Assembly (NCBI GenBank): GCA_039679385.1
Contig: JBDKVB010000029.1
Span: forward strand, 1-35,056
Origin: Armatimonadia bacterium
GTDB lineage: Bacteria; Armatimonadota; Zipacnadia; Zipacnadales; JABUFB01
DNA length: 35,056 nt
Direction of reading: 5' to 3'
Part shown: in pieces, positions 3,134 to 24,330 of the stretch
How positions within the stretch are numbered: position 1 is the stretch's first letter
How the letters are laid out: the number at the start of each line of letters is the position of its first letter
The notes under the pieces: generated by a model
Database searches by the model: none
What the model saw: the letters and a program-made list of their open reading frames with translations, nothing else
What the model was told of the DNA's origin: nothing
Made by a program: the position numbers and the translations under genes

Positions 3134-3158
3134 GGCCATGTGACCCAGGGGTAGACAG

Positions 3159-5097: not shown

Positions 5098-5100
5098 CCT

Positions 5101-8330: not shown

Positions 8331-8332
8331 CG

Positions 8333-8710
8333 GTGTTCAGTGACACGGTCATGGACCACTTCACTAACCCCAGGCACGTGGGTACGCTGGCCTCGCCCGA
8401 CGCCGTTGGCACGGCTGGCACGCCCGGACGCGGCAACTACATGGTTCTGCAGCTCAGGGTGGACGGTGACCGCATCGTGGACTGCGCGTACATGACTTTT
8501 GGGTGCCCTCCTGCCATCGCTGCGGGGAGCGCACTGACGGAGATCATCAAAGGGATGCGGACCGGCGATGCACTCCGCATCACCGCTGAGCATCTGGAGG
8601 AGGCGCTAGGTGGGTTGCCCCTGGGCCGGAAGCACTGTGCGGCCCTCGCCGTGCAAGCCCTGCGTGCGGCGCTATCATCCGTTCTGCCGAACGCCTCCTC
8701 AGACGCCTGA
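8333..8710 (+). CDS. IscU/NifU-N-like scaffold protein lacking ligand residues
   Basis: A 125-residue protein with clear IscU/NifU N-terminal similarity: VMDHFTNPRHVG at the start, MTFGCPPAIAAGSALTEIIKG in the middle and LGGLPLGRKHCAALAVQAL near the end. In IscU the cluster is held by three Cys with an Asp beside the first Cys. Here the second Cys (C58) and the His-Cys pair (H101, C102) remain, but the segment that normally reads Cys-Gly-Asp reads Arg-Gly-Asn (R33, N35). Two key positions are therefore changed. The GTG at 8333 with upstream GAGG was chosen; it follows the previous stop by 2 bases. Its place in a glycan cluster with a radical SAM gene is unusual. It could be a partner or regulator rather than a standard cluster scaffold. 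Confidence 0.85.
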   Translation: MFSDTVMDHFTNPRHVGTLASPDAVGTAGTPGRGNYMVLQLRVDGDRIVDCAYMTFGCPPAIAAGSALTEIIKGMRTGDALRITAEHLEEALGGLPLGRKHCAALAVQALRAALSSVLPNASSDA

Positions 8711-8739
8711 ACGGCGAGCGCCCCGTACCAGATGCGTGC

Positions 8740-8768
8740 GGCCCATCGGGAAGCGGCGGCGATGGGCC
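8740..8768. repeat. Short inverted repeat between genes
   Basis: Nine-base arms (GGCCCATCG and CGATGGGCC) with an 11-base loop lie in the 217-base gap between the IscU-like gene and the small unknown gene. No T-run follows on either strand, so it is a weak terminator candidate at best. It could be an RNA-processing or attenuation hairpin. Nothing else is recognisable in this gap except the strong ribosome binding site of the next gene. Confidence 0.4.
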
Positions 8769-8927
8769 AGGGCGGAAGACCGGTCGTCAGATCAGTGCTC
8801 ATTCGCACACGGGGGGGCGGAGGGCAGGTTTCGGCGGCGTGGCGTCGCCTTGCAGGACGGTGCCGCCATGGCTGGCCTTCGGCCCCATAGTCGCTCACAG
8901 ACAGGCACACCAAGGAGGACAGACGCG

Positions 8928-9227
8928 ATGAACCCCGCCGTGACTGCTGTGTACCGTGACGAGGCTGGCCGCATAGGCCTGGGTATAGCCCGGCTGCATC
9001 AGCTGCTGGAGGCGCCGCACGCCCCAGAAGCACTCCTAAAGGCCAGCAAGATAGCGCGTGAACAGATACTAAGGTTGGGAGCGCTGCCCATCGCCGACGC
9101 CGCGGTGCGAGGCCGTATCCTAGTGGTGCTGGAGGGAATCGAGAGAGCCCCGTCCGATGATCGTGAGACGCTGGAGAAGCTAGGGGAGGCAGTCTGTGCC
9201 TGTCAGCGGTTATGCCCCGGACGGTGA
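8928..9227 (+). CDS. Small helical protein of unknown function
   Basis: A 99-residue protein with an excellent AAGGAGG site 9 bases before its ATG, which supports it as a real gene. It is predicted to be mostly helical, has no signal peptide, and ends in a Cys-containing segment (VCACQRLC). I do not recognise a family. By eye its pattern matches the first roughly 100 residues of the large protein at 9355: LHQLLEAP against LGRLLDAP, then a basic helix, then GRILVVLEGIERA against GRRIARVLASLETA, then a Cys/Leu-rich end. It may be a free copy of that N-terminal domain, perhaps a docking or oligomerisation module for the glycan machinery. Confidence 0.75.
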   Translation: MNPAVTAVYRDEAGRIGLGIARLHQLLEAPHAPEALLKASKIAREQILRLGALPIADAAVRGRILVVLEGIERAPSDDRETLEKLGEAVCACQRLCPGR

Positions 9228-9354
9228 CAGCTAAGTTGGCCAAGGCTGTCCTGCCTGGCGAACCCAACTGCACTGCGTCGATTGCCGCCGCCTGGGGACG
9301 CCCCGTGGGCCGCGACGCGTGCGCTATGACTGATTGGGGGCGGTTACAGAACCC

Positions 9355-12300
9355 ATGCAAGACGGTACGAAGCTAGCGACCGTCGTCCGGTTGAACGGAC
9401 TGCGGGCGCGTATGGAGCAACTCGGGCGCCTTCTCGATGCGCCTAGCACTGGACACACACGCCGCACCCTTCGACAGTGCGCGCGGAGCACGCTCAGACG
9501 CATCCATCCGATGCCTGGCAGTCGGTCACCCGTCGGGCGACGCATTGCAAGGGTACTTGCTTCCCTGGAGACGGCAGGGGAAGGGCCTCCAGACATCGCC
9601 GATGAGTTGAGACTGTGTACTTGTCTTGTGGACGCACTCCTGGTCGAGGGAGGTGCCACGGGGGAGGTCCCTGCGGAGTGCAAGGTCCTGTGGATGCCGG
9701 ACATAGGTGCTGCGGAGCCGCATGCATGGCAAGCCTTCGCCGACATCGTCTGGGCTCTCAGCCAGGAGCCGGATCTGGAGCACGGCATCCAGATTCCTGC
9801 AGCGGGTGATGTACCTGAGTGGGCGCTGCGAGCGCTTCCGCCAAGTTGCCCCGTAAGTCACCGCGGGCGGCACAGAAGTCGCGACTGGCTCGCCGACAGC
9901 ATCAACAGTTGGGACCCAGACGTCGTCGTGACCTTCGGAAGATGCGGTACCGTAGCGAAGCTCGCAGGCCAAGCGGCCAGAGGCTATGGGTGGATAGGTT
10001 TCCACGACAGACACGAAGCGATGCGCGTGCACGGGAGCTTGGCTGGCGGAAGTCGGCCGATGGACGTCATGATCTACCCAGTTTGCCGGCGTGTGCCACT
10101 GCATCCGATACCGGCGGCCGGTGGCACGATGTGGGCAGTCGGGGTGCGTTGGTGGGCCGATATCCTTGGTCAGCCGGCGGTCACCAAGGGCGGCGACGGG
10201 GTGGCCTCCAGGGGCGGCACTGTTGGTTGTATCTACTGGGGCCAGTCGGGCCAGGAGGTCGCGGAGGCCGTACGCCACATGAGACGCCTGCAGACCCGGG
10301 GAGGTGCGTCCGAGCTTCTCCCGCTCGACGATGCTCTTGGCAGAGCATTGCACGGTCTGCTGGAGCAAGGTGACCTGGGCCTGGGGATGACGGTTCTGCC
10401 TCCCCCGCCGGGGAGCGGTACAGAGTGGCGCACCAGCTTGGCAAGCGTTCTCGCTAGCTGGGACAGCGTGGTCTCAGTGGGGCCCCACAGTGACGGGGCA
10501 GCACCCATCAAGTGGGCTGCGGTGGTGGGCACCGCCATCGAGGAAGTGCGCGCCCATGGGGCTGATGGGGACAGATCCCTGACAAAGCCTCGCAGTGGGG
10601 CGTCTCAGCGGAGAGCATCACTGTCGGCTGTGGACGTCTGGCGGTCGACGATCATGCAGGTGTCTGGTGTCACGCCACGGTCGATGCAACGCACACACCC
10701 CGAGGTGCAGGCGGAACCTGCCATGGCTCGCCCGGTTCCAGCAGGGCGACGCGTGCTCGTGATGCGCAAAGTGGGGCTGGGCGACGTGGTGATGAGCAGT
10801 GTTGCAGCGCGTGGCGCCAAAGAGCGGTACCCGGGAGCGCACGTGACTTTCGCCACTTCAGACCGCTATCAAGCGATGGCGTCGCACTTCCCCTACGTCG
10901 ATGCGGTGGCCGACGCGGGGCGCGTGGACGAGCACGACTACGACGCGGCGATGCTATTCGATGACAGGCACCGCTTTGACTTCGCCCCCGGGGAAGGGAG
11001 ACGAGAGCGTCTAGACATCCTCTGTGAACTGGGGGGCGTGGCTCCGTGGGACAGAAAGCCCGTGTATGCTCTGGAGTCCGAGGAAGAGCTTCGGGCGATC
11101 GACTACCTCAGGCAGAGGGGATGGTCCGGCTTCCGCAAGCATGTTGGCGTCGTCCTGTCGGCTGCGGGCCGTGCTCGGAACCGAAGCGTGGAGGCTACGT
11201 CCCAACTCCTTACCGCGATGGGCAAACGGTCAGACCTGCAGCCAGTGCTGCTCGATGTGCGCCGGGATAGGGTCGAGCAACTGAACTGCCCACCGGGTAC
11301 GGTCGACACCTGTGGGGAACTCAGCGTCTGCGAACTGGCGGCCGTCATCTCCCATCTCGACGTGCTGGTTACGCCGGACTCTGGCCCTCTGCACCTGGCG
11401 GCCGCGCTGGACGTCCCCTGCATCGCGTTCTTCAGCGAGGTGCCGGCCGATTGCCGCATAGGCTACTACCCCAACTGCGTAGGGCTGGCTAAGCCCGATC
11501 TCTGCGACCAGTACCCGTGTGGCTACGTTGACGTCTGTCGGGATGCGCGGTGCATCAACGAGGTCCGATGGGGTGACCTTGAGCCCCACCTGAACCGGCT
11601 CCTCGACGTCGAGCGCGTCACAATACGCCATGCGGTTGCGCAACCGGAAGACCAGAGCAGCATCGCCATGCTGGCCAACCAGCTGGCACGCGGGCTGCGC
11701 CAGAACGGGTTGTCCGTCCGGCAGCGTCCCGTGGCTGACCCGCGCTCCGCTGCGTACGGCAACGGGTGTATCGTCGAAGCAGGCGGGAAGCGATTCGCAC
11801 TGCTGACATGCGACAACGACATCGCCTGCGCGGCCTGGACGCGAGAGGTGACGGAGCGCTACGACTACCTTCTGTGCTTCAGCCAGCATGTCTACGACGC
11901 CTATCGTCGAGCGGGCGTCCCCGCCCACAGGCTGCTCCCCTTTCAGCTCGGGCTATCAGACAGGCTTCTGGGGGCGCGTCCGCTGCTCCCTGACGTTCCC
12001 GAGAGTACTTTCGTGTTCTTCTTCAATGGCATCTGCCAGGAGCGCAAGAACGTAGAGGGGCTCGTACACGCCTTCCGGAGGGCCTTCTCCCGCGACGAGG
12101 ATGTGATGCTCGCCGTCAAGAGCAGCCCCAGAGCGTGGGATCGGTGCCAGCAGGTGCTGCGGGCTGCAGACAGCGACCTTAGGGCGACGGAGGGCAGACG
12201 CATTCGGGTGTACTCCCAGCTGTGGACAGTAGAGCAGCTGGCGGGCTGGTATCTTCGAACAGCGCGGCGTGGTGCCTATGTGCATCCGCATCGCGCAGGG

Positions 12301-13677
12301 GGATTCGAGTTGCCCGTTCTGGAGGCCCTCGGCTTCGGCGCCCGCGTGGGGACCACCGGCTGGGGTGGCGTTACGGACTACTGCGACGACCACTTGTTCC
12401 CGTATGAGTTGCGCAGGAGCCAGTTCCAGGTGCCCGACCTCTACCACGCTGGGGGGGCTCACCCCAAGTGGGCCGAACCCGATGGCGCAGATATCGAGCG
12501 CTGGATGCGGTGTGTCTACGAGGAGCCTACCACCCCTGCCTCCCAGCAGAGCACGATGCTACGCGTACGGCGCGACTACTCGTGGCGATCGGCGGCACGC
12601 CGACTTGAGTGGTGGACGCACCACGCCCATCGTCGCTACCTGGTGTTTGGTGGCGCAGGATATGGCAATCTTGGGGACGATGCAATGACACTTGCCTTGG
12701 TGGAGCAACTCGGGCGCGAGCGCTGCGTTGTGAGCTCCTATGCGCCCGTAGAGCAGTTCCCTGAGTGGTTCCATGGGCTGCAGGTGCGGCCTTGGGGGGA
12801 TCGTGGTGCGGCAGCAGTTCCGGCCGAAGGCCTCTTCTCCGACGTGCACACAGTTGCCATCGGGGGGCACGGCTGTCGATGGCCCGACATCCTTGAGGGA
12901 CTCTGCCGGCATGCAGTGGCAGCCCTTGAGCACGGCCTTGATGTTGTGTGGCGTGGTATCGGCATTGACGAACCCGATGGGCACCCCATCGATCGCGACC
13001 TGGTGCGCTACGCCTTCGAGACGGCCCGGTACGTGGGCGTGCGAGACAGCAGGAGCAGGGAGATACTGCATGAGTTGGGTGTCCAGCGCTCGGTGACTAG
13101 AGAACCCGATCTCGCGCTACAGCTCCAGGCGGCCCCGAGCAACCTAGCTGCACCTCTGCTGCGGCCCTTTCTTGAGCCCGAGACCCAGCCCTACGTGGTG
13201 CTGTCGCTGAACTCCATGTACGTGACAGAAGGGAATCTGGGTGAGTGGGCTGCGTGGGTGTCCTCGACCATCCACAGTGGACGTCATGTTCTCTGCGTAC
13301 GCATGTGCCGGCACCTCTGGGACGCACGAGAGGACGACATGCTCGCGGCGGTGGCCCTGCGCCGACGCTGTGGGGGAGAAGCTGGCTTCGACCTTCTCGA
13401 CAGCGCGGTGTCTCCGCAGCTGATGCTGGCCATCATGAGGGGCGCAGACATGGTGGTTGGCATGCGGTACCACTCCTGCGTGTTCGCCCACCGCGTTGGC
13501 ACACCAACCGTAGCGGTGTCCAGACAGGACAAGACACGGCGTTTCTGCACTGAGCATGGGGTTGCATGCCTGGACCCTGACCACATAGCGGCGCTGAGTA
13601 GTGCGTGCAAGAGGGTACTGCAGGACGGAAGGCCAACTCAGGAAAGGGGACTGTGCAGCGGTGACAAACCGGCGTAA
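9355..13677 (+). CDS. Multidomain GT9-GT4-polysaccharide pyruvyl transferase protein
   Basis: A 1440-residue fusion. Residues 1-100 are a helical segment resembling the small protein at 8928. Residues about 100-460 are unrecognised but look alpha/beta. Residues about 465-745 are GT9-like (RVLVMRKVGLGDVVMSS; VTPDSGPLHLAAALDVP; a Cys-rich end). Residues about 765-1090 are GT4-like (FFFNGICQERKNVEGLVHAF; HRAGGFELPVLEALGFG). Residues about 1092-1440 match the polysaccharide pyruvyl transferase (CsaB/WcaK) family: LVFGGAGYGNLGDDAM at the start and MRYHSCVFAHRVGTPTVAVS near the end. The last family either puts pyruvate ketals on sugars or has related roles in envelope polymers. The ATG at 9355 was preferred over an in-frame TTG at 9334. 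It overlaps the next gene by 17 bases. Confidence 0.85.
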   Translation: MQDGTKLATVVRLNGLRARMEQLGRLLDAPSTGHTRRTLRQCARSTLRRIHPMPGSRSPVGRRIARVLASLETAGEGPPDIADELRLCTCLVDALLVEGGATGEVPAECKVLWMPDIGAAEPHAWQAFADIVWALSQEPDLEHGIQIPAAGDVPEWALRALPPSCPVSHRGRHRSRDWLADSINSWDPDVVVTFGRCGTVAKLAGQAARGYGWIGFHDRHEAMRVHGSLAGGSRPMDVMIYPVCRRVPLHPIPAAGGTMWAVGVRWWADILGQPAVTKGGDGVASRGGTVGCIYWGQSGQEVAEAVRHMRRLQTRGGASELLPLDDALGRALHGLLEQGDLGLGMTVLPPPPGSGTEWRTSLASVLASWDSVVSVGPHSDGAAPIKWAAVVGTAIEEVRAHGADGDRSLTKPRSGASQRRASLSAVDVWRSTIMQVSGVTPRSMQRTHPEVQAEPAMARPVPAGRRVLVMRKVGLGDVVMSSVAARGAKERYPGAHVTFATSDRYQAMASHFPYVDAVADAGRVDEHDYDAAMLFDDRHRFDFAPGEGRRERLDILCELGGVAPWDRKPVYALESEEELRAIDYLRQRGWSGFRKHVGVVLSAAGRARNRSVEATSQLLTAMGKRSDLQPVLLDVRRDRVEQLNCPPGTVDTCGELSVCELAAVISHLDVLVTPDSGPLHLAAALDVPCIAFFSEVPADCRIGYYPNCVGLAKPDLCDQYPCGYVDVCRDARCINEVRWGDLEPHLNRLLDVERVTIRHAVAQPEDQSSIAMLANQLARGLRQNGLSVRQRPVADPRSAAYGNGCIVEAGGKRFALLTCDNDIACAAWTREVTERYDYLLCFSQHVYDAYRRAGVPAHRLLPFQLGLSDRLLGARPLLPDVPESTFVFFFNGICQERKNVEGLVHAFRRAFSRDEDVMLAVKSSPRAWDRCQQVLRAADSDLRATEGRRIRVYSQLWTVEQLAGWYLRTARRGAYVHPHRAGGFELPVLEALGFGARVGTTGWGGVTDYCDDHLFPYELRRSQFQVPDLYHAGGAHPKWAEPDGADIERWMRCVYEEPTTPASQQSTMLRVRRDYSWRSAARRLEWWTHHAHRRYLVFGGAGYGNLGDDAMTLALVEQLGRERCVVSSYAPVEQFPEWFHGLQVRPWGDRGAAAVPAEGLFSDVHTVAIGGHGCRWPDILEGLCRHAVAALEHGLDVVWRGIGIDEPDGHPIDRDLVRYAFETARYVGVRDSRSREILHELGVQRSVTREPDLALQLQAAPSNLAAPLLRPFLEPETQPYVVLSLNSMYVTEGNLGEWAAWVSSTIHSGRHVLCVRMCRHLWDAREDDMLAAVALRRRCGGEAGFDLLDSAVSPQLMLAIMRGADMVVGMRYHSCVFAHRVGTPTVAVSRQDKTRRFCTEHGVACLDPDHIAALSSACKRVLQDGRPTQERGLCSGDKPA

Positions 13678-14695
13678 CACGCAGAACAGCGAACTGGTTG
13701 CCGCCAACCATGCGCAGAATGAGGCGGAGATGGCCTCAGGACAAGTCACGATGCAGAGCTACCCCGAGCGGCTGTCATTCTACTGGCGCTCACCGTGTAG
13801 CCTGGACTGCGTGATGTGCGGCAAACATGCTCTTGGATACCCCCTAGACGACGAGAAGCAAGTGCTACGTCTGGCGGAATGGGCGGAGGAGGTGTTTCCG
13901 CACTTGGGGGGACTGTGCCTCTGCCCGTCAGGAGAGCCCTTTGAGTCTGACGTGCTTCTCCAGATCGTGGCGCATGCGTACGCGAATACGCGGATTCTGG
14001 TGGTGAGCAACGGGCAGAGGTTGGCGGGGCAGATACTCGACCAGGTCTTTGAGTACCGCGTAGACCATCTCTCTATCTCGCTGAACGCCGCCCGAGCAGA
14101 GACCTACCAGGCTATCACGGGCGCACCCTTTGAAACGCTGCTCACCAACCTGCGCGAGCTACTGCGGCGGCGCTCAGGGGGCGACGGGAGGCCGCACCTG
14201 GATTACTCGATCGTCGCGATGAACCGTACGGCTCCAGAACTCAGGGACTTCGTGCGTCTGGCGGCTGATCTGGGCGGCGAGCGAGCGATCATCCGCAAGC
14301 TCGGGGTGTCGATCCCAGTAGCCGCATGTCGTCGGAACATACGCTTCGATCCCCGTGTAGAGAACGTTCTCACGGACGAGAGCGTGGGCGAGCGCCTCCT
14401 GGATGACCTATGCGCGGTCGGGGAGAGTGCAGGAATCAGGGTGTCGGCCGACTTCGGACGTGCCTTCACGCGGCCACCGTACCGCTATGGACTGCAGACC
14501 TCGCACGCTCTCGACGCACGTCCTTGGAAGGCCTTGGAGTTGACCAGTTGCGGCGATACCAGATTCGCCTGCGGCAAGCCCGCTGACTTGGGGAACGCGT
14601 GGGAGTTCGAGCGTCTCCACGACCTCTGGAACGGTCCCAAATGGGTGGCAGCGCGCGCGGCAACGGTAGCCCGTCCCGCAGAACCAGCGGCGTGA
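13661..14695 (+). CDS. Radical SAM protein with partial C-terminal Cys set
   Basis: A 344-residue protein with the radical SAM cluster motif CSLDCVMC (C46-x3-C50-x2-C53), a GEP-type SAM-binding segment (PSGEPFES), and a later conserved strand (LSISLNAARAETYQAI). These predict a [4Fe-4S] enzyme that cleaves S-adenosylmethionine to a radical. The C-terminus has SCGDTRFACG and an ERLHDLWNG segment like the SPASM/twitch region of peptide- or sugar-modifying members, but with fewer Cys than a full SPASM set. The GTG at 13661, with AAAGGGGA upstream, gives a 17-base overlap with the previous gene. An ATG near 13730 is the alternative. In this cluster a modification of the glycan or its protein acceptor is possible; the substrate is not known. 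Confidence 0.87.
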   Translation: MTNRRNTQNSELVAANHAQNEAEMASGQVTMQSYPERLSFYWRSPCSLDCVMCGKHALGYPLDDEKQVLRLAEWAEEVFPHLGGLCLCPSGEPFESDVLLQIVAHAYANTRILVVSNGQRLAGQILDQVFEYRVDHLSISLNAARAETYQAITGAPFETLLTNLRELLRRRSGGDGRPHLDYSIVAMNRTAPELRDFVRLAADLGGERAIIRKLGVSIPVAACRRNIRFDPRVENVLTDESVGERLLDDLCAVGESAGIRVSADFGRAFTRPPYRYGLQTSHALDARPWKALELTSCGDTRFACGKPADLGNAWEFERLHDLWNGPKWVAARAATVARPAEPAA

Positions 14696-14896
14696 CATGT
14701 CCCGTCCGGGCCCCGAGTGAGGGGGCGCGTGTGTGGCCGCGGCCTGCTGCCTCATCCACTATCGGGCGGGACGCGACTTCAGCACCCCGTGCGCTCTGCA
14801 GCGTGACCTGGGCACCCTCCTGCTGGTGCGCACCAGCCTCACCCCACCCAACCTGCCCACAATCTAGCCTCCGATCGCTTTCCCTACATGGCAAGA

Positions 14897-14939
14897 GGCC
14901 GCCGCCTGAGCACCACACGCACCCGCTCAGGCGGCGGCC
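14897..14939. terminator. Perfect 15-bp hairpin between convergent genes
   Basis: Two perfect 15-base GC-rich arms (GGCCGCCGCCTGAGC and its complement) flank a 13-base loop. It lies in the 318-base space between the end of the radical SAM gene and the end of the minus-strand HTH frame, so it can serve both directions. Only CCTTTCCC follows on the plus strand and TCTTG on the minus strand, so the U-tract is weak. I see no gene in 14696-15013. The hairpin also marks the left edge of the minus-strand island. Confidence 0.65.
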
Positions 14940-15013
14940 CCTTTCCCATCGCCCACAGCCTTCCTCGCACGCGCCATCCCACCACAGCCGAGGTAGCTAC
15001 ATCGACCGCCTCT

Positions 15014-15205
15014 TCACTCTATCAGCCCCAGGTCTGCTGCCCTGGCGACGGCTTCCGCGGTGGAGGCTGCGCCCAGTCGGTCGCGGCAGTTCCTGAGGTG
15101 TACGTAGACCGTGGTTCCGGAGATGCCAAGCTGTTCTGCTGCCTGTCGCGGGGACTTCCCCTTGCTAAGCATCGCCAGCAGAGACGCCTGGGCCGCCGTC
15201 AGCAA
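15014..15205 (-). CDS. Small LuxR-type helix-turn-helix protein or frame
   Basis: A 63-residue frame with a complete LuxR/sigma-region-4-type DNA-binding domain: LTAAQASLLAMLSKGKS, AAEQLGISGTTVYVHL and CRDRLGAAS. Such domains bind DNA as the output part of response regulators and of MalT-like STAND regulators. The start is uncertain. The only usual start codon is TTG at 15205, with no good ribosome site and inside the first helix region. A CTG at 15256, seven bases after GAGG, would add a basic tail (RRRKRK), giving 80 residues. The frame is open upstream to a stop at 15310, overlapping the end of the nuclease-STAND gene. It may be made by coupled re-initiation or by a frameshift from that gene. 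Confidence 0.6.
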   Translation of the reverse strand: MLTAAQASLLAMLSKGKSPRQAAEQLGISGTTVYVHLRNCRDRLGAASTAEAVARAADLGLIE

Positions 15206-15258
15206 GGGCTTGCCCGGGACCGTTTTCCGCTTGCGCCGGCGTCCGGTCAGGGGCAGCG

Positions 15259-18200
15259 CTAGACCTCGTCCTCTGCGTCCTCCTGCCGGGCCGCGTCGAG
15301 GCGCGCCCTAAGGTGACAGCGTACTTGCGCGGCCCAGCTCTGAATGGCCGGTGCTGCCTCGGTACACCATTCCTCCACGACCCGCAGCTTGCCCTCATAG
15401 AACTCAGAGAGCGGACCGCCGAAGACACCCGACACAAAGTTGGCCTCAAGAGCATCGCCAACGCACTCCGGACCGAAGCGCAGCAACAGCGCGCGTGCCG
15501 GGTCAATCAGGGGGCCGTCCCCGACCGGTGCGACCGAAGCTGCAACCCCCGGACCGTCCGGCAGGTTCGCCTCAGCCCACGCTACGAGCCTATCGGCGCC
15601 AACATATTCCCCATACCACCCACGCAGGGACAGCAACAGGCGCAAGGATCTCTCCTCGGGCGCCAGACGGCGTGCGACGGCTTCCCAGACCTGCCCTGAT
15701 TCGGCCTGGGTAGCTGCGATCAGGGCCGCGCAGACCGGGTTCTCCCTGTACAGGTCAACATCACCATCGGTAGCGACCGTCATGCAGGCAGAAGCGACTC
15801 GCGATGGGTCGAGTGGGACCAGCCTCTTGGCGACCTCACCCCAGTAGAACTCACTCATGGTGCTCTTGCCTGCCTGCGCGGAGGCACGCTCCAGAGCCGT
15901 CCAGACGACCTTCTCAGCCTGTGAGACGTCGAAGTCGCCCTTGTGGAGAGCATGGGTGAGCAGCTCGAGAGCGGCATTGGCAGCTGGCGGCTCAACCTGC
16001 AGAAGCACCTCAGCGATCAGAGCCACCAAGAGGGGCTGGGGCGTGTCGAGGGCCCAAGCAGGAGGCAGGAAGCGTCCCTCTCGCACCAGCAGACGCCCCT
16101 GCTCCCGCATCCGGATCAGACGGAGAAGAGCGCGCTCGGTCAGACCAAAGGCGGTAAGCACGTCGAGGAGTGCGTCGTCGGGCATCTCACGATCAACGGC
16201 CCACTCATCCATCTTGTCCTCAAGCCAGTCCAGGCCTCGCCGGTTCGCGACACCGCGCAGGTAGCCAGAGGCAAAGCGGATTGCCCGCGCCCCATTGACT
16301 TCGCCGCGCGCCACAGGCAACCAGACCAAAGAAGTGTCGCGTTCACCTATCAGTACCCCCAGGGGCTCTGCCTGGACGGCCTCAAGTGATGCCAACCAGT
16401 CAAGGTCAAGTTGGTCAGGATGCCCCATGGCTTCGTCGGCAAGCTGGGCCAGTTGCTGCTGAATGTGCTCCCGGCCCTCTTGTGACGACATCTCATGGTA
16501 GCTCGAAGGGCCTGTCCATCGTCGGATTCTCTCTGCGAAGGTCGAGCCCTGCAACCGCTCAGACAGCGCTTCAAGGAGCTCCGCAAGGTCAGTAGGCATC
16601 TCCCTTCGGTCGTGTTGCAGCAGTCGCGAGATCTCGTCGCGCAGACGCGCTCTATCGCGCTCATCATCGAGGCGGTGCCGTTCCAGACGGTCGACGACGT
16701 CTCCACTGAGGCCCATGCGAGCGAGGCCAGCCCAGCTATCCAGCAGTACCTCGGTGGCTGCCCTCTGCACCTCTGGGTTCTGGTCATCGATCGCTGTGTC
16801 GAGGATCACCAGGGCTGATCGCCGCGCTTCCCATTCCTCGCTCCAGCTTTCAGGCCGCCACCTCGGTGGCACGGACATCCCTCCCTGAACTTCACCGGAG
16901 ACGTCGCCAACTTCATGCGTCTGGAGGGCAGCCGCCACGGCACGCACCGCCAGTAGCCGCGACGGCACTGATCCTCCTAGGGCCTCTCGTAGCAGAGCGT
17001 GTCGATCAACCGCGCGGACAGATGTGCCCCCAAGGTGCGTCAAGAAAAGCGATGTCCAGGCACCAGATGCGTTGTTGTCCCACACCTCGTTCTCGGCCTC
17101 TGCGAGCCGGAGCAACAGGCCTGCAGCCGTGAAGAACACCTCCGGATGCCAGGCGGCGCACTGCAGCGCATGGACAACCTGGCGGCGCCCCTGGGTGAAC
17201 TGGAGGAGTTGGTCGCGAGGAACGTGCTCTAGTACCCGCTGCAGAGCACTGACGCCCTCTACCGGGTGCAGTTGTACGAGAACCTGGACTATCTGGGCCA
17301 GTTCGGGGTCCGAGAGCGCTGCCAGGTTCCGGAACGGTCCACTTGGGCCAAGCAGTTGCCTCGTGAAGGCTTCCGCCACCCCCTCGGAGCCCATATCGAG
17401 CACCCTCTGAAGGAGGGACAGGCGGCTCTCGGGAGTGGGCAGGCGCTGCAGCAGTTCCGGTACCTCGTCGCTGCGGCGCGTCCAGACTTCGTTGGCAAGC
17501 CATACGGCCAGCAGTCGTGGCGTCACATACCGGTACCGTCCTGCATCCGCAACAAAGGGCCGGCTGTTCGGGTTGTGAGGTGCGTCCAGCAGGGCATGGA
17601 GGTCAATTCCCATGAAGCAGGCCAGAACTCTGCCCTCCTCAGCGACGTCGCCGCGGACGCCGACCCTCTGCAGGAGCGATAGCGCCTCCACCGCCCTCCT
17701 GTCCTCACGGTCGGGGATGAGAGCAGCGAGCGGGTCCTGGATGTCCTGCACTCGTGCCAGTTCGCTGGCCGAACGCGCCTGGTTGCCCAGGCGCCGGATT
17801 GCCCTCGCCAGGTTGACAGCCAGCTTGACGTAGCCCCCAGACAGATGTATGACCCGCTCCCGTCCAGAGGGAGCCAGATCACGGAAGCTCTCTGACAGCA
17901 GCTTCCGCATCGCGTCGTCGGCTAGCAGCGTGAGGGTGAGCAGACCCGGCGGATTGGCAGTCGTATACATCGATGTGGGGTCGGTCCCGATCGTGAGAAC
18001 CTTCAGGCGTTCGGGAGTGCTGCTCACGTAGAGAGCCATGTTCTGCATCGTGTGCTGGTCGCACTCGTCCACCACCAGGGCCAGGGTAGCCGACCGATGC
18101 GCACGCACCCATTGCAGAATGTCGCCCAGACCTGCAGCTCCGGGGTTCGGACAGTAGAGCACCCGCTCCTCCCACACAGACCCGAGGACGGCCTCCATCG

Positions 18201-18885
18201 CCAGGCGCGTCTTTCCTACTCCGGCCGGTCCCTCGATCCGGACCATGCCGTGCTGTGATGGGCATGCCAACCACTGACGTATCTGCTTGACATCCTCTTC
18301 GCGCTGCTCGTCTGGGTAGAATGTGGCCTCGTGCTCGGGCACCCTCCGCCACTCCTCAAGCGTATGGAGCCCGCCTGCTCTCGGGCGACGGAACACAGGC
18401 AGCATGGCAACAGTCGGGAACTGCTCGGCCCACTCCGCAAGCTCCCCGCCGTCCAGTATCCTGTAGTTCGGAGGCAGCCCATGCGCCTGGAACCATTGGT
18501 CTGCCGCGGCTTTGCGATTCTGACGTGTCCTGATGTTCAACGCGACACCTGTGGCAAGGCACCAGCAACTGCCCGCCTGTAGCTCCGCGGTGACATCGGG
18601 TTTGTCAAGTTCGTCGGTGAGCTGGTGCGGCTTGATGGCGCCGGCTTTGAACTGCCATACGGACCTCACTAAGGGGAGCCGGGAGTTGGCCCCCGCGGGC
18701 GCACCCTCCGCGAGAGCATCCACGCCGCCGTCCGGCACCGTCATGACAGTGCTGGCGGGGCAGATCACTGACTCCGGGGGCATTCCCAACCGTTCGCTCT
18801 CGCACCGCAAGAGATGCGCCATGAAGTCTACGAAGTCAGGCGGTGGCAGTGCGGCAATGTCCTGCGCCGTCGCCCTGAAGGGCAT
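15259..18885 (-). CDS. Mrr-like nuclease fused to STAND NTPase, antiviral-type
   Basis: A 1208-residue protein. Residues 15-110 look like a PD-(D/E)XK nuclease of the Mrr-like type, with GGVDAL (D56) and WQFK (Q78, K80). Residues 200-370 form a STAND-type P-loop NTPase: Walker A GPAGVGKT at 219-226, Walker B LALVVDECD at 268-276, TIGTDPT as a sensor segment, and LSGGYVKLA as the GxP-like motif. The remaining 800 residues are helical and Leu/Ala-rich, as expected for a repeat-type sensor. This layout is that of Avs/bNACHT-like proteins that sense phage products and then cut DNA. The ATG at 18885 was chosen over the GTG at 18924 because GGGAGG lies 6 bases upstream. Function in defence is inferred from architecture. 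Confidence 0.85.
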   Translation of the reverse strand: MPFRATAQDIAALPPPDFVDFMAHLLRCESERLGMPPESVICPASTVMTVPDGGVDALAEGAPAGANSRLPLVRSVWQFKAGAIKPHQLTDELDKPDVTAELQAGSCWCLATGVALNIRTRQNRKAAADQWFQAHGLPPNYRILDGGELAEWAEQFPTVAMLPVFRRPRAGGLHTLEEWRRVPEHEATFYPDEQREEDVKQIRQWLACPSQHGMVRIEGPAGVGKTRLAMEAVLGSVWEERVLYCPNPGAAGLGDILQWVRAHRSATLALVVDECDQHTMQNMALYVSSTPERLKVLTIGTDPTSMYTTANPPGLLTLTLLADDAMRKLLSESFRDLAPSGRERVIHLSGGYVKLAVNLARAIRRLGNQARSASELARVQDIQDPLAALIPDREDRRAVEALSLLQRVGVRGDVAEEGRVLACFMGIDLHALLDAPHNPNSRPFVADAGRYRYVTPRLLAVWLANEVWTRRSDEVPELLQRLPTPESRLSLLQRVLDMGSEGVAEAFTRQLLGPSGPFRNLAALSDPELAQIVQVLVQLHPVEGVSALQRVLEHVPRDQLLQFTQGRRQVVHALQCAAWHPEVFFTAAGLLLRLAEAENEVWDNNASGAWTSLFLTHLGGTSVRAVDRHALLREALGGSVPSRLLAVRAVAAALQTHEVGDVSGEVQGGMSVPPRWRPESWSEEWEARRSALVILDTAIDDQNPEVQRAATEVLLDSWAGLARMGLSGDVVDRLERHRLDDERDRARLRDEISRLLQHDRREMPTDLAELLEALSERLQGSTFAERIRRWTGPSSYHEMSSQEGREHIQQQLAQLADEAMGHPDQLDLDWLASLEAVQAEPLGVLIGERDTSLVWLPVARGEVNGARAIRFASGYLRGVANRRGLDWLEDKMDEWAVDREMPDDALLDVLTAFGLTERALLRLIRMREQGRLLVREGRFLPPAWALDTPQPLLVALIAEVLLQVEPPAANAALELLTHALHKGDFDVSQAEKVVWTALERASAQAGKSTMSEFYWGEVAKRLVPLDPSRVASACMTVATDGDVDLYRENPVCAALIAATQAESGQVWEAVARRLAPEERSLRLLLSLRGWYGEYVGADRLVAWAEANLPDGPGVAASVAPVGDGPLIDPARALLLRFGPECVGDALEANFVSGVFGGPLSEFYEGKLRVVEEWCTEAAPAIQSWAAQVRCHLRARLDAARQEDAEDEV

Positions 18886-19014: not shown

Positions 19015-19626
19015 TCATGCATGCGTTACAGGTAGATGCTGTGGCGCGAAGGGCTCTTTCGGGCGGGTCTGTGGTCTTAGCACTGCCCTGGCTTTGCCGC
19101 CCTTGCCTCTCTGGATCGTGATCTGGGACAGGTCCGCCGCCACGTCGCCGACGTTGAGCCCAAGCAACTCGCTGCGGCGAAGGCCGCAGCCGAGGAGAAG
19201 CAGAGCGACGGCTCGCTCTCGCTCCGTCGCGCAGGCCCCAAGGAGGCGACGACAGTCCTCCTCGGTTGGCACCTGGGGGAAGGCCTCGGGCACGCGTGGC
19301 CTCGGCACGCCGGCGACGGGGTTGCCTTCCACGACGCCCGTCTGCTGCAAGTAGCGGAAGAAGGAGCCAAGGCTGCTCAGCTTGCGCGCCACGGTAGCCG
19401 GGCAGCGCTCCTGCCCAAGCCAGCGGCAGAACCCGTAGACATCGCGAGTCTGGACTGTCTCCAGAGTCGCAGCCGAGCACTGTGCTCGCAGGTACGCAAG
19501 GAACTGCTCCAGGTCACCCCTGGAAGCCCGAAGCGTGTTAGGACTGAGGCCTTGCACGGTCGCTTGGGACTGGAGGAACTCCTGCACCAGTGGGTGCAGG
19601 CCGGGCGGGGCGCCGACTGTGCTCAT
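19015..19626 (-). pseudogene. Truncated XerC/D-like tyrosine recombinase
   Basis: A 203-residue frame that matches a tyrosine recombinase from its N-terminal DNA-binding domain (LSPNTLRASRGDLEQFL) to the first catalytic Arg (R150 in GCGLRRSELLGL) and the beta-hairpin Lys (K175 in GKGGKAR). Similarity then stops near base 19086. The HxxR, His and nucleophile Tyr are absent here and in the other frames downstream. Normal length is about 300 residues. Without the Tyr it cannot perform strand exchange alone. An AAAAGGAAAC ribosome site precedes the ATG, so a short protein may still be made. The break lies just before the nuclease-STAND gene and may be a junction where that gene arrived. Confidence 0.75.
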
Positions 19627-19822: not shown

Positions 19823-20668
19823 TCAGGGGCGGCGAGTTTTGGTCAACCGATCGACGGGGAACAACCACTGATCCGCCCGGAGATCGGCCTCGAGAAGAGC
19901 GGTCCCGTCAGGGAACACCTCCCCGGCTCTGCGCCCACCCAACTCTATCGCGAGTTGCTGCACTCGGCGTGGTGTTAGCCCCAACCAGATGGCCGCGCGG
20001 GCTGTCGATACGTACTGCTCACCGCCCGGGCCCGGGGGGATTCGGAGCACGCTGCCGAGATCGCCGAGCGGAAGATCAGAGGACGATACCTGTGCCATCC
20101 CCTCGGGTGTTGCGTGGACATGCTTGGCGGATCCCTCGAAGTCGCCACTCAGCGGCATGCCGTTCCTGGCGGCGGCCGCCCGTAGGTGGTGTCTGACCGA
20201 CCCGAGGTAGCGCCCCATGCGCTTGCGCAGATAGCTCACAAAGGAAGTACCTGGCGCGCCCTCCCGCGAACCCCGCTGGAAGTCGAAGCCTTGCACCGCG
20301 CGGCGGAAGGCGCTTTGCAGAGCCTCCGGGGCCCTCTCTGGGACCAGGTCGGCGAGATCGCCTCCTGAACGCCCCAACTGCTCGCCAGTGGCACGAAGCA
20401 TCGCGGCCCAATCGCCTTGCAGCGGGACATAGCAGACACAGTAGAGCGCGTCCAATAGGGAAGAGGATCCCGCGGGGGCCAGGAGCGTTGCCTGCGCCGG
20501 CAGCTTCGCCTGGTACAGGAAGAAGTTCCTCACTTCCTCCAGCACCCGCCGACGGCCGCTTTCCTTGCCGTGTGGGGGGGCGACTGCAGAACCGTACCGC
20601 GTCGGCGGGGCCGACGTACGGGAGTACCCAGAAGGACCACCGACCCCTCCGGTACGGCGCCAGAGCAT
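19823..20668 (-). CDS. C-terminal part of the frameshifted recombinase-like protein, sigma-like
   Basis: A frame that continues the coding character of the gene at 20076 after a +1 shift. Real sequence seems to begin at the 7-C run (minus strand) at 20574-20580; before that it is shadow. Removing one C joins the two frames as FCSRPPHGKESGRRR and gives a single protein of about 937 residues. The part at 20180-20419 resembles sigma-70 region 2: LQGDWAAML, DLADLV, then AVQGFDFQRG and TSFVSYLRKRMGRYL. The C-terminus has a helix-turn-helix-like segment (ARAAIWLGLTPRRVQQLA). Sigma similarity is by pattern only. It is followed by the terminator at 19767. Confidence 0.65.
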   Translation of the reverse strand: MLWRRTGGVGGPSGYSRTSAPPTRYGSAVAPPHGKESGRRRVLEEVRNFFLYQAKLPAQATLLAPAGSSSLLDALYCVCYVPLQGDWAAMLRATGEQLGRSGGDLADLVPERAPEALQSAFRRAVQGFDFQRGSREGAPGTSFVSYLRKRMGRYLGSVRHHLRAAAARNGMPLSGDFEGSAKHVHATPEGMAQVSSSDLPLGDLGSVLRIPPGPGGEQYVSTARAAIWLGLTPRRVQQLAIELGGRRAGEVFPDGTALLEADLRADQWLFPVDRLTKTRRP

Positions 20669-22637
20669 CCCAGCGGTTCACGAAGGCTTGCTGGAACTCC
20701 TCCTCGTCGTGGATCTCCGCAAGGCTGTCGGGGAATAGCGGGTCCCCCTTCGTGTTCAGCGGGAGCGCCCTCGTGGCAAGGAGCAGCGTGCCCAGCCACT
20801 GCACCATGGTCTCGATGAGTAGTTCCTCCGGAGGTGCACAGTGCTGGTAGAAGCCCCCGCTCGGTGTCGTCCCTCCTGAGACCATAGCAGCGACGAAGAA
20901 GGCGTACAGGGCACAGCCGGGCAGAAGCTCTCGGACCGCCTTGTCGGTCAGCCCGTAATAGGGCTTGACCGCGTCGTAGGCTCTGGCGAAGGTGGGCCAA
21001 TGGCGATCTACCAAGAGCCAGAACCAGACAGCCTGCTCCGGGTTCGCCAGCACCCGAAGCAGCACCTCCACACCATAGGGGGTATGCAGGAGCCCCCGGG
21101 CTTGCTCGCCAAGTAGATCGCCTGCTTCTGCCGCCTGCGCAGTCTGAACTGCTGCCTCTAGTACTCTCAGGTCAGGGGACGCGTCGACAAAGACCTCTCG
21201 CAGGACGTCAGGATCGGCGGCTCGCGGCGGCTGAGGGGTCTGGTCCAGCTCTGCTGCAATGCACGCCCGATGGAGTGCTTCCTCCGGGGACGCGCAAGCT
21301 CTGCGGGCCTTGGTCAGACGGTGCAGCCCCGACGCGCCGACAGAGGTGAGACGGTGCATCAGTGCGCCAGCATCCTCGTTCGTCGGCTTACGGGCAGCCG
21401 CCTGGACCGCTGAGTAGGCAGCTTCCAGGCGGGGAGTGTCGTCAAGGTCGCCGAGAGCTTCAACGAAGTCGGCGACGGCCTCTGAGAGCGGCCCGTCCCA
21501 GGTCGAAGCGGATGGACCGCACTCTTGCGGGAGCGCCGTCTCGGCGGGAGCAAAGTGGTCGATACAGGCGTACAGGTCCGGCCTCCGCAAATACACCCGG
21601 CCGTCTCTCTCGACGTGCCGCATCCCTCTGGCGATGAGTCTCCAGAGCTGTTCCGCGGTCAGGTGCTCTGCATCGCCGACAGCCTCCAGCGTGAACCACT
21701 GGCCCTCTCTGTCCGCGCAGTACTCCCATGCCTCACCGGCAAAGCGTCGTCGCGCCGACCGGGCATCGGCAAGGCCCAGGGCACCGGCCACGTGGTCCCA
21801 CCCGTAGCCATCGCTGAGGATGAGCCGAGCCGCGCAGTCGCGTAGGCGCTCGAGGGTCACGGAAGGGTCAACCCCAGCGAGGGCAGACCACCGCGCCGAG
21901 AACCGTTCTCGCAATCTCTTCGGGGTGAGGGCCCCTCCGTGGTCGTTGGTCAGGAGCGGCTCATCAGCACTGCGGCCCATCACAAGGGGCGCCAAGGCCT
22001 TCGCCAAGACTTCGGGCAAGGGTAGGACCCGTGGTTCGGCCAAAGGGACAGTGAGGAGCCCGTGCTCAAAGCTAGCCGACCCAACCGTCAGCGCACGCAG
22101 GTCCTGGGCAGACAGGCCGAGAACCGCCACCAGAAGAATGATCGACGCGTCAACTGCCGCTCGGGGCGTGCCTTCCGTGACCAGGCCCTCGATGGCCGCC
22201 CAGGGCACGAGCGCTGGTATCGGGGTGGCGGGCTTCGCAGCCAGGCGCTTCAGGTAGGCGACGCGCTTCTCGGTCAGTGCCGGTGCCTCCCCTGACAGCC
22301 ACGAAGCGAAGCCCTTCATCTCGGTCAGGCAGGCCTCGATGTCGTCCTCGGGCTGCCCACCTCGACGCATCTCCATGGTGATGCGTTTCAGGTGGCTGCA
22401 GGCCGTCTTGAAGCCCTTGGCTCGGGCGTGGTGTACCAGTGGGGCCAGGAACGTGCAGCGCGCTTTGGCCTCCTCGGGCCGACACCCACAGGCTCGAAGG
22501 TAGTCGTAGTACGCGCGGATGGTCTCAGTCAGATCTGTGGCGTCACCCACGGGCTTCTTCCTGTGGTTCTTCGACAGAACACTCATCTCACGTTCGAAAC
22601 CGAAGATGCGTTCGAGGGCACGCACATACCCTATCAT
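20076..22637 (-). CDS. Large degenerate tyrosine-recombinase-like protein, frameshifted
   Basis: The first ~300 residues follow the tyrosine recombinase layout: an N-terminal helical domain, GLSAQDLRAL where the first catalytic Arg normally sits (it is Ser here), TLERLRDCAARLIL in the place of HxxR (His lost), and LGL...RRRF where the last His and Tyr should be. It is thus probably inactive as a recombinase by itself and may act with the intact enzyme upstream, as TnpB-like partners do. Residues 300-690 are helical and unrecognised. Past about base 20574 the frame becomes Arg/Pro/Gly shadow sequence, and true coding moves to the frame ending at 19823. The ATG at 22637 was chosen for its GGAGGG site; the frame is open to 22670. 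Confidence 0.7.
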   Translation of the reverse strand: MIGYVRALERIFGFEREMSVLSKNHRKKPVGDATDLTETIRAYYDYLRACGCRPEEAKARCTFLAPLVHHARAKGFKTACSHLKRITMEMRRGGQPEDDIEACLTEMKGFASWLSGEAPALTEKRVAYLKRLAAKPATPIPALVPWAAIEGLVTEGTPRAAVDASIILLVAVLGLSAQDLRALTVGSASFEHGLLTVPLAEPRVLPLPEVLAKALAPLVMGRSADEPLLTNDHGGALTPKRLRERFSARWSALAGVDPSVTLERLRDCAARLILSDGYGWDHVAGALGLADARSARRRFAGEAWEYCADREGQWFTLEAVGDAEHLTAEQLWRLIARGMRHVERDGRVYLRRPDLYACIDHFAPAETALPQECGPSASTWDGPLSEAVADFVEALGDLDDTPRLEAAYSAVQAAARKPTNEDAGALMHRLTSVGASGLHRLTKARRACASPEEALHRACIAAELDQTPQPPRAADPDVLREVFVDASPDLRVLEAAVQTAQAAEAGDLLGEQARGLLHTPYGVEVLLRVLANPEQAVWFWLLVDRHWPTFARAYDAVKPYYGLTDKAVRELLPGCALYAFFVAAMVSGGTTPSGGFYQHCAPPEELLIETMVQWLGTLLLATRALPLNTKGDPLFPDSLAEIHDEEEFQQAFVNRWDALAPYRRGRWSFWVLPYVGPADAVRFCSRPPTRQGKRPSAGAGGSEELLPVPGEAAGAGNAPGPRGILFPIGRALLCLLCPAARRLGRDASCHWRAVGAFRRRSRRPGPREGPGGSAKRLPPRGARLRLPAGFAGGRARYFLCELSAQAHGALPRVGQTPPTGGRRQERHAAEWRLRGIRQACPRNTRGDGTGIVL

Positions 22638-22705
22638 CTCCCCTCCAGCTCCGCAAGGTCCAGGCGTCATGGCCGTAGCAGACGTCCGCCCCGACCAAGG
22701 TCGCG

Positions 22706-23692
22706 CTATCTGCTCTGCGTCGGGAGCCTTCGCCAGGCGGGAGCAGGCCTTGGCGCGGGCGCTTCAGTGTGCTTGGCAGGATCCGTCGCCACACCAGTGC
22801 CTGCGAGAGGGTGTCTCTCGACTCCGCTCCTGAGGTCCCTCGTGTCTGCGTGCAGGTATACCGCTGTCGTCTCAAGCCTGGAGTGTCCCAGCAGACCCTG
22901 GATTGCCACTAGGTCTGCCCCGCCCTTCAGCAGCAAGGTCGCGAAGGTGTGACGCAGCGTGTGGAGCGAAACGCCCTCCCTGGTCACCCCGCTTTGCTTC
23001 CGCACGCGTTGCCAGATGATCTGCAGGCGCGAGGGGTAGATGCGGTTGCCGCAGACCGTGGTAAACAGGTAGTCATGGGCAGCGGCCGGCCTCACCGCCA
23101 ACCACGTACCGATGGCGTCCACGACCTCCTCCACCAGCGGAATCATGCGGCCCTTTCCTCCCTTCCCGCACCGCACATGGAGCGTTCGCGAGGGCAGCAT
23201 GACGTCCTCCAGCCGTAGCGCAAGCAGTTCGCTGCGTCGTACCCCGGTGAAGACCAGCGTAGCCATCATGGCGAAGTCCCGTGCGGCCACTACCGGATCA
23301 CGATGGTCGGCGCCGGCGGCCAACAGGTGACGCGCCTCTTCGACGCTCAGGCGCGTCGGGAGAAGCTGCCGACGCTTGGGGACGGAGATGCGGCTGAGGG
23401 GATCGTGGTCAACGAGGTCGCTATCCTGGAGGAACCGCCAGAAGCTACGGAGGGCGTACACATGTCGTGCGATGGTCGAGGCCGCCAGCCCACGCTGCTT
23501 CATCGACACGATCCAGCGACGCACAAGCGCCACCGATACGCCTTCCGGGACGGCGACGCCTTCCGACCGCACGAACTCAAGAAACTGCGACAGGTCGGAC
23601 GCATATGCGAGCTGGGTCTTGGGACTGTAGCCCTTCTCGGCGTCAAGGTAAGCGAGGAAATCCTGGACCACTGAGCATGTATCCATCGGCAT
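22706..23692 (-). CDS. Intact XerC/D-like tyrosine recombinase
   Basis: A 328-residue site-specific recombinase with all catalytic positions visible: R152 in FTGVRRSEL, K177 in GKGGKGR, H244 and R247 in HTLRHTFAT, H270 in LLGHSRLETT and the nucleophile Y279 in AVYLHA. The SAM-like N-terminal DNA-binding domain is present (GYSPKTQLAYASDLSQFL). The ATG at 23692 has GGAAGGTG eight bases upstream; the longer frame to 23956 would run into the RNase P RNA gene and was rejected. It has a roughly 30-residue Pro/Ala-rich tail beyond the usual end. It is the first gene of the island and the best candidate for its integrase; a chromosomal XerC/D role is less likely given its neighbours. Confidence 0.9.
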   Translation of the reverse strand: MPMDTCSVVQDFLAYLDAEKGYSPKTQLAYASDLSQFLEFVRSEGVAVPEGVSVALVRRWIVSMKQRGLAASTIARHVYALRSFWRFLQDSDLVDHDPLSRISVPKRRQLLPTRLSVEEARHLLAAGADHRDPVVAARDFAMMATLVFTGVRRSELLALRLEDVMLPSRTLHVRCGKGGKGRMIPLVEEVVDAIGTWLAVRPAAAHDYLFTTVCGNRIYPSRLQIIWQRVRKQSGVTREGVSLHTLRHTFATLLLKGGADLVAIQGLLGHSRLETTAVYLHADTRDLRSGVERHPLAGTGVATDPAKHTEAPAPRPAPAWRRLPTQSR

Positions 23693-23822
23693 TATCGGCA
23701 CACCTTCCGCGGTGCCGTGCCAGTGGATGAGGGATAACCGTGGCCGGGTTGTGGAGGTAACGCCCGAGCTTCTTGAGCTTGCCCTGCGAGTGGGACGTTG
23801 CAGGTGGTTATGTAGCCCCCTG

Positions 23823-23889
23823 AAGCCCGATTCTGTGGCTTTTCGCCACATCCGGCAAGCGGAGAGTGGGTCTATAAGCCGGATTCTGT
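23823..23889. repeat. Imperfect direct repeat at the 3' end of rnpB
   Basis: AAGCCSGATTCTGT occurs at 23823-23836 and again at 23876-23889 with one mismatch in 14. The second copy is the conserved 3' segment of RNase P RNA; the first lies just outside the gene, on the recombinase side. Between them is a 6-bp hairpin (TGTGGC/GCCACA, 23834-23850). The arrangement could be an integrase-binding or attachment region, or a chance partial duplication. Confidence 0.5.
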
Positions 23890-24330
23890 ACCCACGGGCT
23901 TGGGAGCTCCTGGGTGGCGACCATTTATCTTGGGTGCCTGTTACCAGACACCTCATGCACCCGACCCGGGGACTCGGACGGGCAGTCCTGCGGTGACAAG
24001 CAAGCTCGTCACACTCGTCCCCCTACGTGGGCTTGCTCCCGACGGGGTTTGACCAGCCGCCACGTCGCCGTGACGCTGGTGCGCTCTTACCGCACCATTT
24101 CACCCTTGCCGGCCCCCGCAGTCAGGAGTTTCGGGCGGTTGGCCCTGACCCCTTGGCCCGGGGTTGCACCCAGTGCACTCGCGTGCCCCGGCGCTCCGGC
24201 GGTATGTTTCTGTGCCACTTTCCGTAGGGTTACCCCTCCTGGCCTTTTGCCAGCGTCGTGCCCTGTGGAGTCCGGACTTTCCTCATCCCGCAGCAGATTG
24301 CGCGAGACGCGGCCGCCCGACCCACTCTCC
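23861..24330 (-). ncRNA. rnpB: RNase P RNA, bacterial type A
   Basis: The RNA part of RNase P, which removes 5' leaders from precursor tRNAs. On the minus strand the conserved segments are in order: GAGGAAAGTCCGGACTCC (24266-24285 region), GCGGTAAGAGCGCACC (24081-24096), GGAGCAAG, AGATAAATGGTCGCC, and ACAGAATCCGGCTTAT (23874-23889). The two ends pair (GGAGAGTGGGTC with GACCCACTCTCC), which fixes the limits at about 24330 and 23861, or 470 bases. This is longer than the 377 bases of E. coli, with extra length in the variable helices. The gene is divergent from the sugar operon and is followed by the recombinase island. Confidence 0.96.

What the first reader, a model, noticed from the sequence alone, without database searches (positions are those of the whole stretch)
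15014..18885. Nuclease-STAND defence protein paired with a LuxR-type HTH
The sequence shows a PD-(D/E)XK motif set (D56, Q78-x-K80), Walker A and B motifs and a long helical C-terminus, the layout of Avs/bNACHT antiviral NTPases. MalT-type STAND regulators carry a LuxR HTH at their C-terminus; here a full LuxR HTH lies in the next frame directly after the stop. A nuclease-STAND with a separable DNA-binding output would be a new arrangement: the HTH could autoregulate the gene or guide the nuclease.
Basis: partly seen in the sequence, partly recalled or inferred. Interest (0 to 1): 0.78.

Follow-up and report, generated by a model that had tools for sequence, protein, structure and literature searches.

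The report
Defence NTPase beside a recombinase scar
A bacterial gene that looks like a known type of phage-sensing, DNA-cutting immune protein sits inside a broken mobile element, and the small DNA-binding fragment next to it is the leftover tail of the element's recombinase, not a partner of the immune protein.

Summary
The large gene is real: window 15259-18885, minus strand, 1208 aa, ATG with a GGGAGG ribosome-binding site. Its N-terminal nuclease motif (E29, D52, D56, Q78-x-K80) and Walker A/B motifs are conserved in about 30 homologues. An AlphaFold model (pLDDT 80) matches Avs3, Avs5, CED-4 and plant NLRs, with a helical, HEAT-like C-terminus. The closest named family is PADLOC PD-Lambda-4_A (E=2e-22), not the PADLOC Avs models. 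It is a divergent member of a known kind.

The LuxR-type HTH is also real (Pfam GerE, E=1e-11), but the proposed pairing fails. None of 43 homologue loci scanned carries it. Its best relatives are the last 80 residues of large serine recombinases (LSRs) in two sister genera: 54% identity, beginning 2 nt after the STAND stop. On the other side of the STAND gene lies a tyrosine recombinase that lost its C-terminal third. In relatives an intact XerC-type recombinase directly precedes an LSR at 13 of 25 LSR loci. In the window the STAND gene fills that interval: the XerC 3' end and the first 89% of the LSR are gone.

The "STAND + HTH" layout is therefore a replacement scar inside a multi-recombinase mobile element. 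The STAND gene is most likely its anti-phage cargo.

The parts
15259..18885 (-). Nuclease-STAND protein, 1208 aa (P0001), divergent PD-Lambda-4_A-like
   Evidence: C-terminus aligns end to end with the closest homologue L075
18892..18897 (-). GGGAGG ribosome-binding site, 6 nt before ATG 18885
   Evidence: Sequence
18406..18885 (-). N-terminal PD-(D/E)XK-type nuclease domain, residues 1-160 (E29, D52, D56, Q78-x-K80)
   Evidence: Conservation; model pLDDT 90; best fold match EcoO109I restriction enzyme, E=0.04, weak
18205..18231 (-). Walker A, residues 219-227 (GPAGVGKTR)
18061..18078 (-). Walker B, residues 270-275 (LVVDEC)
15262..17478 (-). All-helical HEAT-like C-terminal region, residues about 470-1208, presumed sensor
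   Evidence: AlphaFold model and Foldseek karyopherin/SF3b-type matches
15014..15256 (-). C-terminal 80-residue remnant of a large serine recombinase; holds the 'LuxR' GerE domain (15041-15202)
   Evidence: 54% identity to LSR residues 625-704 of 705 (G001) and 609-687 of 688 (G002); GerE E=1.9e-11
15257..15261 (-). Junction: STAND stop TAG (15259-15261) abutting the recombinase remnant
   Evidence: Homology to LSR starts at 15256
19015..19626 (-). Truncated XerC-like tyrosine recombinase; homology ends about 19081, catalytic C-terminal part missing
   Evidence: 50-53% identity to residues 25-195 of intact 330-aa XerC of G001; alignment
19823..22670 (-). Large integrase-like protein (TnpB-like), split over two frames near 20590 (20076-22670 and 19823-20668)
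   Evidence: tblastn of the continuous G001 protein matches both frames in order; weak Pfam Phage_integrase
22706..23956 (-). Intact XerC/D-like tyrosine recombinase, 416 aa
   Evidence: Pfam Phage_integrase E=1.4e-33

Best explanation
The large gene encodes a single-polypeptide, Avs-like anti-phage sensor of the PD-Lambda-4_A kind. A C-terminal helical repeat region senses infection, a central STAND NTPase switches or assembles on ATP, and an N-terminal PD-(D/E)XK nuclease cuts DNA. It is cargo in a mobile element that carries several tyrosine recombinases and a large serine recombinase (LSR). The STAND gene replaced the block from the last third of the XerC-type gene to codon ~624 of the LSR gene, so the LuxR-like HTH is only the left-over LSR tail. 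Shown: the ORF, motif conservation, family and fold matches, LSR identity of the HTH, both truncations, and XerC-LSR adjacency in relatives. Inferred: phage defence, ATP-driven activation, DNA cleavage, and that the remnant has no function.
For: HTH: best relatives among 291 genomes of the phylum are LSR C-termini in the same family, 54-55% identity. Those proteins carry Resolvase, Recombinase, Zn_ribbon_recom and two GerE-type domains. Homology starts at 15256, upstream of the TTG, and includes the linker LPLTGRRRK. XerC: the window copy aligns only to residues 25-195 of 330. XerC directly followed by LSR on the same strand, gap 355-666 bp, at 13 of 25 LSR loci in relatives. No LuxR HTH at 43 homologue loci. 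Defence: PADLOC PD-Lambda-4_A E=2.3e-22; close relatives of the model (L048 1205 bits, L058 1132 bits) lie in the same family as P0001. Homologues lie on plasmids and (pro)phage contigs, one beside a CBASS-annotated gene, one beside phosphorothioation genes. Fold: Avs3, SAMD9, CED-4, Avs5 and RPP1 among the top PDB matches, E 5.5e-9 to 8.4e-5.
Against: No experiment. The PADLOC match covers residues 6-721 only; no PD-Lambda-4_B partner was found in the proteins scanned. The Pfam STAND match is below the gathering score. The nuclease fold match is weak (best E=0.04). The genome is a draft, so an assembly chimera at the two junctions cannot be excluded. The remnant keeps a coding-like frame and could still be translated from CTG 15256 (GAGGT 6 nt upstream). 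No intact copy of this LSR exists in the same genome, so break points are known only to a few codons.
Confidence: 0.88

Rival explanations
1. The HTH is a genuine small regulator or DNA-targeting subunit of the nuclease-STAND, translated by re-initiation after the STAND stop.
For: Directly abutting, same strand, intact GerE domain, coding-like codon score; GAGGT before a CTG at 15256 (sequence).
Against: Absent from all 43 homologue loci scanned. Identity is to LSR tails, linker included, and the matching XerC truncation lies on the other side of the STAND gene. No ATG or GTG start; the only TTG lies inside the homologous region.
Confidence: 0.04
2. A MalT-like STAND regulator whose C-terminal HTH was separated by a frameshift; the two frames are one protein.
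For: STAND followed by GerE in the -1 frame.
Against: The STAND C-terminus ends where its homologues end. No homologue has a fused HTH. No slippery heptamer in the 49-nt overlap (sequence). The fold is Avs/CED-4-like with a HEAT-like tail.
Confidence: 0.02
3. Assembly chimera: the contig joins an LSR tail, a STAND gene and a recombinase from different molecules.
For: Draft genome of 184 contigs; abrupt junctions.
Against: Both outer pieces come from the same element type, in the order and orientation seen in relatives. G+C is even across the junctions, 0.63-0.66.
Confidence: 0.06

Closest known systems
PD-Lambda-4 component A (PADLOC PDLC03991; defence screen of Vassallo et al. 2022, PMC9519451)
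   Same: Length about 1200-1280 aa, N-terminal DGGxD...QxK domain, P-loop NTPase, helical C-terminus; E=2.3e-22 over residues 6-721.
   Different: Only 20-29% identity to family members examined; the C-terminal 40% is not matched by the model; no component B found near it.
Avs1-Avs4 (AVAST) nuclease-STAND proteins
   Same: Three-part layout nuclease-STAND-helical repeats; best PDB fold match is Avs3.
   Different: No PADLOC Avs model matches at E<=1; shorter than Avs3 (about 2000 residues in 8dgc).
MalT / LuxR-type STAND regulators
   Same: STAND NTPase and a GerE domain in one locus.
   Different: HTH not fused, not conserved, and derived from a recombinase.
Large serine recombinases with tandem GerE-like C-terminal HTHs (G001:C58, G002:C29)
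   Same: The window HTH is 54% identical to their last 80 residues.
   Different: The window lacks the resolvase, recombinase and zinc-ribbon domains.
GInt islands (ginABCD, PMC5385486) and Tn554-like elements
   Same: Several tandem tyrosine-recombinase genes at one side, variable cargo.
   Different: Here an LSR follows; the sequences were not tested against Gin proteins.

Membership tests
PD-Lambda-4 component A | Significant match to the PADLOC model | tested here: met
   PDLC03991 E=2.3e-22; coverage 6-721 of 1208, so partial
PD-Lambda-4 component A | Accompanied by component B | tested here: not met
   None of the window proteins scanned against PADLOC matched it; not found beside the homologues scanned either. 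So it is filed as a component-A-like protein, not as a complete PD-Lambda-4 system
PD-Lambda-4 component A | Protects against phage | not testable with these tools
   Needs a challenge assay
Avs/AVAST | Match to Avs profiles | tested here: not met
   No PADLOC Avs model at E<=1
Avs/AVAST | Effector-STAND-repeat sensor architecture | tested here: met
Avs/AVAST | Recognition of terminase or portal protein | not testable with these tools
STAND NTPases | Walker A/B and STAND fold | tested here: met
   Invariant motifs; fold matches to Avs3, CED-4 and RPP1; Pfam nSTAND_NTPase5 E=5.6e-4, below gathering
PD-(D/E)XK nucleases | E...D...(D/E/Q)xK active-site set, conserved | tested here: met
   E29, D56, Q78, K80
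PD-(D/E)XK nucleases | Nuclease core fold | tested here: inconclusive
   Best match EcoO109I E=0.04; Avs4 TM 0.49; nothing below 0.001
MalT-like STAND-LuxR regulator | GerE domain fused or conserved with the STAND | tested here: not met
Large serine recombinase (HTH fragment) | C-terminal tail homologous to the family, linker included | tested here: met
Large serine recombinase (HTH fragment) | Resolvase catalytic domain | tested here: not met
   Absent from the window; hence a remnant, not a working LSR

The most novel reading that the evidence does not exclude
The surrounding element is an undescribed mobile-element type in this bacterial order: tyrosine recombinases followed by a large serine recombinase ending in tandem LuxR-like HTH domains. 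It can trade its own recombinase genes for defence cargo, and the leftover HTH might still bind element ends.
Probability: 0.3. Interest if true: 0.5.

Novelty: new member of a known kind. Interest (0 to 1): 0.3.

Why it matters
It removes a false lead (a nuclease-STAND with a detachable DNA-binding output) and gives a clear example of how a recombinase scar can mimic a regulatory partner. It also widens the PD-Lambda-4_A family to a divergent branch found in bacteria and haloarchaea, on plasmids and (pro)phages, and gives a residue set for testing it. The conserved XerC-LSR pair may be a mobile-element type worth describing.

Tried and rejected
P0001 gave no close relative in genome contigs or viral contigs by short exact peptides and none in phages. 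Alignment A1 was too diverse for a pattern scan. The HTH gave no plasmid match and only unrelated LuxR-type proteins in genome contigs. Frameshift fusion: no slippery site, and the STAND terminus is native. PDB sequence search with P0001: nothing; the family profile gave only weak STAND hits (PH0952, NRC1). Promoter/terminator scan: nothing. Nucleotide comparison of element ends with relatives: nothing. XerC or LSR-type genes are not systematically next to other STAND homologues.

Full report
What is there. The large frame is window 15259-18885 on the minus strand. The ATG at 18885 has GGGAGG six bases upstream. The HTH at 15014-15205 is a full GerE domain (E=1.2e-11) in the -1 frame.

What the large protein is. 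PADLOC places it with PD-Lambda-4_A, E=2.3e-22 over residues 6-721. Proteins that match that model over nearly its whole length (L048 1205 bits; L058 1132 bits) align with it in one family. No PADLOC Avs model matched at E<=1. PD-Lambda-4 comes from the E. coli phage-defence selection (PMC9519451); PMC10952713 lists it under a P-loop NTPase domain. Homologues are on plasmids of cyanobacteria, rhizobia and haloarchaea, on 18 viral or prophage contigs and, as strong matches, in about 10 of 291 genomes of the same phylum. Some lie beside other defence-type genes: a CBASS-annotated phospholipase and phosphorothioation-associated genes.

Structure. AlphaFold with 15 homologues gave mean pLDDT 80, pTM 0.52. 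The top PDB matches were Avs3 (5.5e-9), SAMD9, CED-4, Avs5 and later the plant NLR RPP1, together with karyopherins and SF3b, which are HEAT-type. TM-scores over the whole chain are low (0.1-0.3), so the matches speak for shared domains, not for a shared overall arrangement. The nuclease domain alone was modelled at pLDDT 90; its best match is the restriction enzyme EcoO109I, with Avs4, Mus81 and Bse634I in the list, none below E=0.001. The nuclease reading therefore rests mainly on the conserved motif.

What the HTH is. No LuxR-type HTH was found at any of 43 homologue loci, about 444 kb. These homologues are distant (about 20-29% identity) and a few loci end close after, or inside, the gene. 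Searching the phylum with the HTH gave as best hits two genomes of the same family at 54-55% identity, inside long frames. These are large serine recombinases of 705 and 688 aa with Resolvase, Recombinase, Zn_ribbon_recom and two GerE-type domains at the C-terminus. The window sequence aligns to residues 625-704 of 705, begins at 15256, two bases after the STAND stop, and includes the linker LPLTGRRRK that lies upstream of the TTG. The genome has no other copy of this LSR.

The other side. The frame at 19015-19626 is a tyrosine recombinase that aligns to residues 25-195 of an intact 330-aa XerC in G001 and then diverges at about 19081; the C-terminal catalytic part is missing. In G001 the order is TnpB-like, XerC, LSR. 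In the window it is XerC-like (22706-23956), TnpB-like (19823-22670), truncated XerC, STAND, LSR tail. Across 61 relatives, XerC is directly followed on the same strand by the LSR at 13 of 25 LSR loci, with gaps of 355-666 bp: G001:C58, G001:C838, G002:C29, G003:C188, G003:C349, G006:C6, G008:C114, G011:C94, G015:C2, G015:C38, G030:C83, G036:C238 and G036:C390 (paired by reading the coordinates, and the XerC list was cut off, so this is a lower bound). The STAND gene thus occupies the place of the missing block.

Mechanism. The most likely function is phage sensing by the C-terminal repeats, ATP-dependent switching or assembly through the STAND domain, and DNA cleavage by the nuclease, as described for Avs1-Avs4 (PMC12931631). 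Only the anatomy is shown here. The HTH has no supported role. It could still be translated from CTG 15256, which has GAGGT six bases upstream.

Verdict. The sequence observation is correct. The nuclease-STAND reading is good. The new arrangement is a scar.

Noticed in passing
G001:C58, G002:C29 and 11 further loci: A XerC-type tyrosine recombinase directly followed by a large serine recombinase with tandem LuxR-like HTH tails recurs across genera of the order; possibly an undescribed mobile-element type.
   Followed up: partly
window 19823-22670: The TnpB-like integrase is split over two frames near 20590, so this recombinase is probably decayed, or there is a sequencing error.
   Followed up: partly
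L003 973-1398 (G005:C3): A 141-aa N-terminal fragment of the same STAND family, cut after the nuclease motif, in a genome of the same order.
   Followed up: no
L086 5960-6085 and L088 3911-4807: Further truncated LSR C-terminal tails in sister genera, showing that such remnants occur elsewhere.
   Followed up: partly
L058-L075: Eighteen IMG/VR (viral or prophage) contigs carry PD-Lambda-4_A-like genes, 25-65% identical to the query used; this suggests phage- or prophage-borne defence.
   Followed up: partly
window 133-13677: Glycosyltransferase-rich cluster, including a 1447-aa fusion with Glyco_transf_9, Glyco_trans_1_4 and PS_pyruv_trans domains.
   Followed up: no
window 13601-14695: Radical SAM protein converging on the mobile element, with weak similarity to metalloenzyme maturases.
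   Followed up: no
window 14890-14946: Strong 22-nt inverted repeat (91% complementary, 13-nt loop) just downstream of the LSR remnant; possible terminator or element end.
   Followed up: no
L054 316-4434: In Rhizobium leguminosarum a 1372-aa protein with an N-terminal HTH lies directly upstream of a PD-Lambda-4_A-like gene.
   Followed up: no
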